A stretch of 64,000 bases of DNA from an uncultured Curtobacterium sp. (GTDB lineage Bacteria; Actinomycetota; Actinomycetes; Actinomycetales; Microbacteriaceae): the NCBI GenBank assembly GCA_913778205.1, contig CAJYUW010000031.1, positions 1-64,000 of the forward strand. The letters run 5' to 3'. The number at the start of each line of letters is the position of its first letter. Within the stretch, counting starts at the first letter, position 1. Under the pieces are notes generated by a model. The model did not search any database, was not told the DNA's origin, and saw only the letters and a program-made list of their open reading frames with translations. Below are positions 16,060 through 17,686 of this stretch, in pieces. The translations under genes and the position numbers were made by a program.

Positions 16060-16272
16060 ATGTTCTCCGGGGGATTCGCCGTCGTGTCGATCGTCTACCT
16101 GCTCGTCGTGCTCGCCGCACTCGTGCTCGGGATCGCGCTCATCGTGCTCGTGTTCGCGGCGATCCGGGTCCTCCGGCTCTCGGCGCAGGAGCGGGAGCTG
16201 CGCATCGACCTCCTGCGCGTCCAGCACGCCGTCGAGCTCGACGACGGCGAGCCGGGCTCGCCCGCCGCGTAG
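16060..16272 (+). CDS. Small single-pass membrane protein
   Basis: A 70-residue protein with one long hydrophobic helix (about 5-38) and a charged cytoplasmic tail with a likely helix (RLSAQERELRIDLLRVQHAV). No family recognised. The TACGCT element six bases upstream supports the ATG at 16060 and expression. It precedes the 73-bp repeat array. Confidence 0.65.
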   Translation: MFSGGFAVVSIVYLLVVLAALVLGIALIVLVFAAIRVLRLSAQERELRIDLLRVQHAVELDDGEPGSPAA

Positions 16273-16337: not shown

Positions 16338-16690
16338 GAGCGACGTGGTCGTTGTCGTACGACAGCGGCGTTGTCGCAGTGCCGCGTGAGCAACTTCCTG
16401 CGTGTGCAACGAGCGACGTGGTCGTCGTCGTACGACAGCGGCGTTGTCACAGTTCCGCGTGTGCAATCTCCTGCGCGTGCAACGAGCGACCAGCCCGTTG
16501 TCGTACGACGTCGGTGCTGTCGCAGTGCCGCGTGTGCAACCTTCTGCGTGTGCAACTTCTCGCGCGTGTGCAACGAGCGACCAGCCCGTTGTCGTACGAC
16601 GTCGGCGTTGTCGCAGTGCCGCGTCTGCAACCCCCAGCGCGTGCAACGAGCGACGTGATCGTCGTCGTACGACAGCGGCGTTGTCGTTCA
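16338..16690. repeat. 73-bp direct-repeat array with GTCGTACGAC palindromes
   Basis: Four full units and a partial fifth start at 16338, 16411, 16484, 16575 and 16648. Three units are 73 bp; the third is 91 bp because an 18-bp segment with another CGTGTGCAAC is added. Each unit starts GAGCGAC and carries a perfect 10-bp palindrome GTCGTACGAC (16354, 16427, 16500, 16591, 16664), then GGCGTTGTCGCAGTGCCGC-like sequence and CGTGTGCAAC motifs. Two unit types exist: GTGGTC (1, 2, 5) and CCAGCCC (3, 4) before the palindrome. No plausible gene lies in it, the 73-bp period is not a multiple of three, and there are no unique spacers. Confidence 0.9.
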
Positions 16691-16759
16691 GCAGCGACGT
16701 CGCACGCGCCACCGACGCCCGCCGGATGCCACCGACGCCCGCCCAACGCCCGCCCAACG

Positions 16760-16807: not shown

Positions 16808-17686
16808 CTACACCGCGGCGGACCGCTCCGACCGCTCCGTCGCCGCCCAGGTCCCGAGCAGCGCCAGGTTCCGCTCGGACTCGCTGCCGGGCTCAGCCCC
16901 GTACGTGAACATCGTCAGGCCCGGGTCCGCGACGAGGTCGAGCGCCTCGTACGTCAGGTCGAGCGCCCCGACGACCGGGTGGTCGAAGCGCTTGCGACCC
17001 GTCCGGTGCGATCGCACGTCGTGGGCCGCCCACCACGTGCGGAACTCCTCGCTCCGGGTGGAGAGCTCCCCGACGAGGGTCACGAGTCCGGGCTCGCACG
17101 GGTTCGCGACGGCGGCGGCGCGGAGGATCGCGACGGCGTCACGCGCGGTCTGTGACCAGTCGCGGAAGAACTCGCGCGCGGCAGGGTCGAGGAACGTGAA
17201 GCGTGCGGTGTTCACCGGTCGCCCCGGACCGGCGAACATCGGCGAGTAGAGCGCGCGGCCGAGGTCGTTCGTCGCGACCACGTCCCCGCGCTCGTTCCGG
17301 ACCCACGCCGGCGCACCGGTGATGGCGTCGAGGAGCTGTTGCACGCCGGGGCGCACCCGGGTCGGGACGTTCCGGTGCATGGTCTTCACCCCGGCGTTCG
17401 CGAGCCGAGCGAGGTCCCACAGGTGCGTGCGCTCGTCGTCATCGAGGCGCAGAGCGGCGGCGAGCCCGTCGAGCACGCCGTCGGACACGCCCTTCAGGGT
17501 GCCCCGCTCGAGCCGCGTGTAGTAGTCGACGCTGACGCCGGCGAGCATCGCCACCTCGTGCCGACGGAGACCGGGGACCCGACGGACTCCTCCGCCGAAG
17601 GTCGGCATCCCGACCTGGTCCGGGGTCAGTCGCGCCCGTCGTGAGGACAGGAAGTCCCGGATCTCCTTGCGCACGTCGATACCCAT
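16808..17686 (-). CDS. XRE-family regulator with MmyB-type ligand-binding domain
   Basis: A 292-residue regulator. The helix-turn-helix (about 36-62) reads RRHEVAMLAGVSVDYYTRLERG, and the C-terminal 100-280 region matches the MmyB-like domain (WVRNERGDVVATNDLGRALY, FLDPAAREFFRDW), thought to bind a fatty-acid-like ligand. The family often controls neighbouring SDR or AKR genes, but none is adjacent here. ATG 17686 lies seven bases from TACCCT (17694-17699), a leaderless arrangement. It ends at the G-quadruplex/repeat region. Confidence 0.9.
   Translation of the reverse strand: MGIDVRKEIRDFLSSRRARLTPDQVGMPTFGGGVRRVPGLRRHEVAMLAGVSVDYYTRLERGTLKGVSDGVLDGLAAALRLDDDERTHLWDLARLANAGVKTMHRNVPTRVRPGVQQLLDAITGAPAWVRNERGDVVATNDLGRALYSPMFAGPGRPVNTARFTFLDPAAREFFRDWSQTARDAVAILRAAAVANPCEPGLVTLVGELSTRSEEFRTWWAAHDVRSHRTGRKRFDHPVVGALDLTYEALDLVADPGLTMFTYGAEPGSESERNLALLGTWAATERSERSAAV

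What the first reader, a model, noticed from the sequence alone, without database searches (positions are those of the whole stretch)
16338..16690. Non-coding array of 73-bp repeats each carrying a perfect GTCGTACGAC palindrome
Four full units plus a partial fifth; palindromes at 16354, 16427, 16500, 16591 and 16664 lie 73, 73, 91 and 73 bp apart. 73 bp is close to seven helical turns, so most palindromes would face the same side of the helix, as expected for an ordered protein-binding array. Two unit types (GTGGTC and CCAGCCC before the palindrome) alternate in blocks, and the third unit gained an 18-bp piece with an extra CGTGTGCAAC. The period is out of frame and no gene fits. It could be a binding array for a nucleoid or partition protein, an sRNA array, or a mobile non-coding repeat. 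I know no named element like it.
Basis: partly seen in the sequence, partly recalled or inferred. Interest (0 to 1): 0.72.

Follow-up and report, generated by a model that had tools for sequence, protein, structure and literature searches.

The report
Intergenic operator-like repeat arrays of Curtobacterium
The repeats are real: they belong to a family of regularly spaced, protein-site-like DNA arrays scattered between genes in most sampled species of one bacterial genus, in at least two sequence dialects, and one whole dialect can vanish in a close relative, although the protein expected to read them is not yet known.

Summary
The array is real and belongs to a genus-wide family. Its core is a 36-bp skeleton, CGAC-N9-GTCG-NN-CGAC-N9-GTCG, usually repeated every 72-73 bp. 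The own genome has 75 copies; 51 of 60 Curtobacterium genomes carry it (0-108 copies; backwards control 0). In 292 other genomes of the family only 1-3 stray matches occur, in 27. In 80 of 80 loci examined in four relatives it is intergenic: 40 convergent, 4 divergent.

Variable positions do not pair above chance in the own genome or G044, nor between neighbouring cores in any of five sets; G001 is slightly above, and perfect palindromes are an over-represented minority. So the skeleton is probably read mainly as duplex DNA. RAYT transposase is absent from 60 of 60 genomes, so it is not filed as REP/REPIN. Two dialects differ in centre, inner bases, linker and period (72-73 or 71).

Between two close species one has 32 TA-type cores, the other none; their array-bearing gaps are rewritten (median identity 0.35, 8 gaps) while other gaps are 93% identical (25 gaps).

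Best reading: ordered binding arrays for an unidentified, dialect-specific protein, evolving like a RAYT-less BIME family. The protein, its function and any mobility are not shown.

The parts
16341..16376 (.). Core 1, type I, 16/16 skeleton bases
16377..16413 (.). Linker 1, 37 bp
   Evidence: linker consensus
16414..16449 (.). Core 2, type I, 15/16 (last base A)
16450..16486 (.). Linker 2, 37 bp
16487..16522 (.). Core 3, type I, 16/16
16523..16577 (.). Linker 3, 55 bp: carries one extra ~18-bp GTGTGCAAC sub-repeat
16578..16613 (.). Core 4, type I, 16/16
16614..16650 (.). Linker 4, 37 bp
16651..16686 (.). Core 5, type I, 16/16
16687..16700 (.). Possible outer end (TTCAGCAGCGACGT); resembles the weak outer-end consensus of the own genome's arrays
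16060..16272 (+). Left flanking gene, 70-aa predicted protein, ends towards the array; no Pfam family
16808..17686 (-). Right flanking gene, MmyB-like HTH regulator, ends towards the array (convergent gap)

Best explanation
The locus is one of dozens of intergenic binding arrays for a dedicated, sequence-specific DNA-binding protein that has not been identified. SHOWN by sequence: a fixed 36-bp skeleton made of two 17-bp inverted-repeat sites (CGAC-N9-GTCG) joined by 2 bp, mostly repeated at 72-73 bp with a weakly conserved linker of nearly fixed length; restriction to Curtobacterium in the collections searched; intergenic placement, mostly downstream of genes; two dialects that differ in core, linker and period together; similarity of neighbouring cores as direct repeats; strong copy-number differences of one dialect between close species. 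INFERRED: a dimeric or tetrameric protein reads each core as double-stranded DNA, bound cores are ordered along the array, each dialect has its own protein or protein variant, arrays grow by tandem duplication, and loss of the protein leads to quick loss of its arrays. What binding does (DNA architecture, insulating gene 3' ends, or recognition by a transposase-like protein that copies the arrays) is not resolved. Evolutionarily it behaves like a BIME family without RAYT.
For: Skeleton in 51 of 60 Curtobacterium genomes, backwards control 0 in all 60; TA form in 46 of 60. Adjacent cores at 72-73 bp: 48 of 56 in G001 and G044, not chosen by spacing; 167 of 211 strict type I pairs in all held loci, part of which were chosen by a 30-42-bp linker. 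Pairing at variable positions within cores: own 61 cores 0.464 against null 0.529, G044 74 cores 0.643 against 0.651, G016+G037 29 cores 0.648 against 0.638, named type I TA 197 cores 0.599 against 0.597. Between neighbouring cores it is below the null mean in 5 of 5 sets, and direct identity above it in 5 of 5. No overlap with predicted genes in 80 of 80 loci of G001, G044, G016 and G037; 40 convergent, 4 divergent, against 21 and 21 of 76 background gaps of 60 bp or more. Two dialects. At one gap fetched by the neighbouring protein and not by the motif, 24 of 50 genomes have an intact core and 6 a degraded one, in gap sequence that by eye is otherwise poorly conserved. Set-wise difference: TA copies 32 in G001, 0 in G033; 81 in G044, 5 in G039. 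Type I is probably ancestral there: 9 of 32 G001 cores are identical, 17 of 32 within one base, to a core of the more distant G005, and G033 keeps one decayed copy.
Against: No protein is identified; the only candidate family tested (ParB_N) shows no correlation. Pairing within cores is slightly above the null in G001 (0.632 against 0.588, 21 of 500 shuffles as high) and clearly above it in two pooled multi-species sets (L031-L060 0.604 against 0.488; all named cores 0.565 against 0.523); restricting to TA type I brings the named set to the null but leaves L031-L060 above it (0.626 against 0.574, 8 of 500). Perfect palindromes are over-represented: 7 of 74 in G044 (null 1.1), 13 of 290 named (1.0), 3 of 29 in G016+G037 (0.4), and one orthologous pair keeps a perfect palindrome through compensating changes. 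Whole two-core elements fold more stably than shuffles (z -6.15 for 16578-16686, -8.91 for one G044 element). Some spacings break the order. End-like inverted repeats and the turnover would also fit a mobile element.
Confidence: 0.48

Rival explanations
1. A non-autonomous mobile repeat: MITE-like or REPIN-like units with inverted ends, copied into gene 3' regions by an unknown transposase or recombinase that recognises the cores.
For: Inverted outer ends (CCGACTCGGAA / TTCCGAGTCGG in G044); set-wise differences and rewriting of array-bearing gaps between close species; orthologous arrays less alike at variable positions (0.576 best orientation, 108 pairs) than arrays at different loci of one genome (0.70 in G044, 0.674 in G001); both dialects use the same gaps.
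Against: No RAYT/Y1 transposase in 60 of 60 genomes. No near-identical copies at different loci of G044: best pair 0.88, median 0.78 of 33 elements. No clear target duplication at the one fairly clean indel read. No autonomous copy seen in the loci held; not searched genome-wide. Orthologous similarity rises when flanks exceed 90% identity (0.665 for 5 pairs, 0.975 for 1) and cores are shared between G001 and G005, as for inheritance in place.
Confidence: 0.3
2. An RNA element: hairpins at gene 3' ends acting as bidirectional terminators or RNA-processing sites.
For: Placement between convergent genes; stable predicted folds; excess of perfect palindromes and above-null pairing in G001 and in pooled sets; compensating changes in one pair; one terminator-like match at 16663-16680, shuffles mean 0.2.
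Against: Within single genomes pairing is below the null in the own genome and at the null in G044; between neighbouring cores it is below the null mean in 5 of 5 sets; the window's own cores mismatch 5-7 of 18 pairs; no Rfam match at gathering score; several gaps hold a separate perfect hairpin as well.
Confidence: 0.15
3. Neutral tandem-repeat noise: local slippage of a chance palindrome with no recognition by anything.
For: Direct similarity of neighbouring cores and a 213-bp duplication in G001.
Against: The same 16 fixed bases in the same 36-bp frame at unrelated loci and species, with only stray matches in the rest of the family; dialect-wide linkage of core, linker and period.
Confidence: 0.05

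Closest known systems
REP / BIME / REPIN elements (E. coli, Pseudomonas, Stenotrophomonas)
   Same: Dispersed, intergenic palindromic units, often in doublets or regularly spaced clusters with variable linkers; hybrid clusters of two types; binding sites for proteins. REP features taken from passages of PMC8049555 and PMC2817692.
   Different: No RAYT gene, no GTAG/GTGG-type head, arms not generally kept complementary, neighbouring cores in direct rather than inverted order, mostly fewer than 100 copies.
ParB parS and Noc/SlmA/MatP-type chromosomal site families (recalled, no call)
   Same: Palindromic duplex sites spread over a chromosome.
   Different: Tandem arrays at fixed spacing and dialects; in G044 even spread from dnaA (10, 10, 9 and 12 of 41 loci per quarter of the distance, counted); one ParB_N match per genome.
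CRISPR arrays (features recalled)
   Same: 36-bp repeat plus 35-37-bp linker geometry.
   Different: Cores vary from copy to copy, linkers share motifs and are not unique spacers.
MITEs (features recalled)
   Same: Short, intergenic, inverted ends, lineage-specific numbers.
   Different: No near-identical copies in G044, no target duplication or parent transposon found.

Membership tests
REP/BIME/REPIN | Extragenic location | tested here: met
   0 of 80 loci overlap a predicted gene (19 in G001; 41 in G044; 20 in G016 and G037); gene caller is my own
REP/BIME/REPIN | Cognate RAYT (Y1) transposase in the genome | tested here: not met
   PF01797: 0 of 60 genus genomes, control found it in 5 of 14 known genomes including E. 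coli; 0 in own genome
REP/BIME/REPIN | Imperfect palindrome kept by complementary changes | tested here: inconclusive
   Not met in the own genome (0.464 against null 0.529) or G044 (0.643 against 0.651); slightly above the null in G001 and above it in pooled sets; minority of perfect palindromes in excess
REP/BIME/REPIN | Inverted doublet that folds as one hairpin (REPIN) | tested here: not met
   Core1-core2 pairing below the null mean in 5 of 5 sets, direct identity above it in 5 of 5; the folds are stable all the same
REP/BIME/REPIN | GTAG or GTGG-like head at the 5' end | tested here: not met
   Flanks of cores favour A-R-CGAC / GTCG-Y-T; feature from passages of PMC2817692
REP/BIME/REPIN | High copy number (usually >100) | tested here: inconclusive
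   0-108 exact skeleton copies per genome, own 75
MITE | Terminal inverted repeats | tested here: inconclusive
   Inverted outer ends in G044, weaker in the own genome and no clear consensus in type II
MITE | Target site duplication | tested here: inconclusive
   Seven G001/G033 gap pairs aligned; most gaps rewritten, no clear duplication
CRISPR | Near-identical repeats with unique spacers | tested here: not met
   cas genes not searched
ParB/Noc site array | A ParB-family paralogue in array-bearing genomes | tested here: not met
   One ParB_N match in each of 20 genomes, with and without arrays
Described structured RNA | Match to an Rfam family | tested here: not met
   0 matches at gathering score in the 64-kb window; lower scores and other loci not searched

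The most novel reading that the evidence does not exclude
Curtobacterium carries two (or more) orthogonal, RAYT-independent repeat systems in which a dialect-specific duplex DNA-binding protein keeps dozens of ordered operator arrays in gene 3' gaps; switching or losing that protein leads to genome-wide purging of its arrays, often leaving arrays of the other dialect in the same gaps.
Probability: 0.35. Interest if true: 0.8.

Novelty: new variant of a known kind. Interest (0 to 1): 0.62.

Why it matters
The REP/REPIN repeats described in the passages read (PMC2817692, PMC8049555) are tied to RAYT transposases and to hairpin formation. This family has no RAYT in the genomes searched, looks mainly duplex-read, comes in dialects that change core, linker and period together, and can be missing as a set in a close species while ordinary gaps stay 93% identical. 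Close pairs with and without one dialect (G001/G033, G044/G039, G059/G031) would turn the search for the trans-acting protein into a comparison of gene content, and make the question of why bacterial intergenic repeats persist testable.

Tried and rejected
sRNA or Rfam element: no match in the window. RAYT/REPIN: no transposase and no pairing between neighbouring cores. Partition or Noc-like ParB: one match per genome in 20 of 20. Origin/terminus positioning: even in G044; G001 has none of its 18 TA-core loci in the ~0.9 Mb around dnaA, not tested for significance. Phage or plasmid origin: 0 matches in viral contigs for a TA pattern and a type II pattern, none by blastn of one type I array in phages or plasmids. 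Papers, listings only: Curtobacterium with palindromic/intergenic (3 papers), the exact 10-mer, Microbacteriaceae and REP terms, Curtobacterium and repetitive/intergenic terms (15 seen of 1,962), interspersed repeats and RAYT, Curtobacterium and REP sequences, BIME/convergent/nucleoid terms (12 seen of 13); by title and abstract start none describes this family. Only open-licence papers are held.

Dropped or limited before counts: scripts count exact skeleton matches unless a score is stated. The 69 G044 cores are those followed by T on either strand, from the listing, not all 81. One search gave loci for 30 of 59 genomes with a match, best scores first. One search matched 60 of 60 genomes; I looked at 50 (30 best-scoring, 20 chosen by me). 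Overlapping own-genome loci make the 'own' row unusable. G051 was left out of the one-locus tree, which shows no support values. output was cut and I do not count from it. TA counts allow N8-10, those only N9, so differences between them are approximate. One sequence given to (L272) missed its array.

Full report
1. The observation. The five GTCGTACGAC palindromes and their 73, 73, 91, 73 spacing are as described. They lie in a convergent gap between a 70-aa predicted gene (16060-16272, +) and an MmyB-like HTH regulator (16808-17686, -). The palindrome is the centre of a larger unit, CGAC-N9-GTCG-NN-CGAC-N9-GTCG, 36 bp, at 16341, 16414 (15 of 16 bases), 16487, 16578 and 16651. No other place in the window reaches 15 of 16; 20 Markov windows gave a mean of 0.15.

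2. A genus-wide family. The array matches 56 places in its own 3.43-Mb genome. With TA in the centre the skeleton occurs 37 times there and in 46 of 60 genomes of the genus; with any centre 75 times and in 51 of 60 (0-108 copies); the pattern read backwards gives 0 in all 60. In the family sample, of 292 genomes outside the genus 4 have 1-2 TA matches and 27 have 1-3 matches with any centre (the backwards control matched in 1 of 299). In the first 80 of these loci, 87 spacings fall in the permitted range of 66-78 bp: 59 at 73, 23 at 72, 3 at 71, 2 at 78.

3. Placement. In the 80 loci of four relatives none overlaps a predicted gene; 40 are convergent, 36 tandem, 4 divergent (19 loci of G001; 41 of G044; 20 of G016 and G037). 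In about 164 kb of background (window and five G001 stretches) convergent and divergent gaps of 60 bp or more are equal, 21 and 21 of 76. The gene caller is my own. Distances from dnaA in G044 are even over four quarters (10, 10, 9, 12 of 41 loci, counted from the list).

4. Anatomy. Just outside each core A-R is favoured before CGAC. In G044 a common element is: end (CCGACTCGGAA), core, 37-bp linker centred on GCAAC-n-GTTGC, core, inverted end; single-core and longer forms exist. Own-genome linkers keep mainly a TTG near each edge instead. A second dialect, typical of the G016 and G037 loci, has centre AT or AA, the inner CG one position further in, a linker centred on GCAYC-n-GRTGC, and period 71 in 10 of 10 spacings. 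Hybrid arrays of both dialects in register occur (L209, L222). Spacing: 48 of 56 adjacent cores closer than 300 bp in G001 and G044 are at 72-73; 167 of 211 strict type I pairs in all held loci, partly chosen by spacing.

5. Duplex or hairpin. If the units worked as RNA or single-strand hairpins, the variable positions should pair. Against a null that re-deals half-sites within each set: own genome 61 cores, 0.464 against 0.529, below the null; G044 74 cores, 0.643 against 0.651, at the null; G016+G037 29 cores, 0.648 against 0.638; G001 34 cores, 0.632 against 0.588, slightly above (21 of 500 shuffles as high). Pooled multi-species sets are above the null (L031-L060 0.604 against 0.488; named 290 cores 0.565 against 0.523), as mixing dialects and species would give; TA type I alone is at the null in the named set (0.599 against 0.597, 197 cores) and above it in L031-L060 (0.626 against 0.574, 31 cores, 8 of 500). 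Perfect palindromes are in excess: G044 7 against 1.1, named 13 against 1.0, G016+G037 3 against 0.4. Two-core elements fold strongly (z -3.70 and -6.15 for two stretches of the window, -8.91 and -6.85 for two of G044). Pairing between neighbouring cores is nevertheless below the null mean in 5 of 5 sets (own 18, G001 13, G044 34, named 151, type II 10 arrays) while direct identity is above it in 5 of 5; the low value partly follows from the direct similarity. My reading: the fixed bases are read mainly as duplex DNA, arrays grow by tandem duplication, and a minority of cores have become perfect palindromes.

6. History. At the window's own gap, retrieved through the HTH protein (30 of 59 genomes with a match), the own genome has 4 intact cores, G004 has 3, G010, G028 and G032 one each, and the other 25 have none (G004 and one other contig end soon after the gene). 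Another gap, retrieved through a cation-efflux protein, shows 24 of 50 genomes with an intact core, 6 with a degraded one, 19 without (gap 19-102 bp in the 18 measured; the own genome is among them) and 1 without data; some species have type I and others type II there. Close pairs differ as sets: TA copies 81/5 (G044/G039), 32/0 (G001/G033), 56/9 (G059/G031), 56/15 (G056/G053), other centres about 1/5, 9/21, 32/31 and 25/42 (tree of one locus). G031 is one contig and G033 two, so missing copies are unlikely to be an assembly effect there; G039 has 320. G001 and G033 are 94-95% identical at the compared locus, G001 and G005 90.5-92%. Yet 9 of 32 G001 cores are identical, and 17 of 32 within one base, to a core of G005 (orthology of places not checked), and G033 keeps a decayed type I copy at one gap: G033 probably lost the set. 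Gaps without an array are 93% identical between G001 and G033 (median of 25), gaps with an array in either genome 35% (median of 8). In 4 of 9 compared gaps where G001 has type I, G033 has type II (one of them degraded), and in a fifth G001 has an intact type II core beside its type I array and G033 has type II alone. Orthologous arrays in other species are less alike at variable positions (0.576, 108 pairs) than arrays within G044 (0.70), except where flanks exceed 90% identity.

7. What it does. I commit to ordered binding arrays for an unidentified dialect-specific protein (0.48). Shown: architecture, restriction in the collections searched, placement, dialects, direct similarity of neighbours, set-wise differences. 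Inferred: the protein, its oligomeric binding, its identity with the factor whose loss purges arrays, and any role at gene 3' ends. A mobile-repeat reading with an unknown enzyme is the main rival (0.3) and is compatible with binding.

8. Known families. REP/BIME/REPIN elements are closest in behaviour (features from passages of PMC2817692 and PMC8049555), but RAYT, inverted doublets and the GTAG/GTGG head were tested and not met, so it is not filed there; conserved complementarity is inconclusive. CRISPR, ParB-type and Rfam membership were tested, within the limits given in the table, and not met.

9. Names. The window's HTH protein is 97% identical to those of G004 and G010.

Noticed in passing
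window 8133, 17768, 23847, 41930: A second dispersed family of near-perfect hairpins (ACGGGAGGC...GCCTCCCGT), also beside arrays in other species; terminator-like.
   Followed up: no
L009, L068, L155, L031: Some of the larger arrays (3-7 cores) lie in the flagellar gene cluster before an flgB-like gene (gene names by resemblance, recalled; genes listed for L009, L068 and L155, L031 linked by flanks).
   Followed up: partly
L209:4322-4571, L222:4690-5073: Hybrid arrays with type I and type II cores in one register.
   Followed up: partly
G052 (rows): A distant member of the genus has cores with variable centres, some 71-72 bp apart, perhaps a third dialect.
   Followed up: no
G192:C1:1856278, 2039108, 2419259: Another genus of the family has three palindromes of the same skeleton, two of them near-perfect repeats of each other; possibly a related element.
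   Followed up: no
L065:4300-4621: In G001 the array plus the neighbouring hairpin is duplicated in tandem (213 bp).
   Followed up: no
L084: A draft contig of G004 ends inside the array orthologous to the window's; arrays may break assemblies.
   Followed up: no
L289/L290: G044 and G039 are 96-97% identical at this locus, yet the gap is about 331 bp against 39 bp; filler around the array is missing too.
   Followed up: partly
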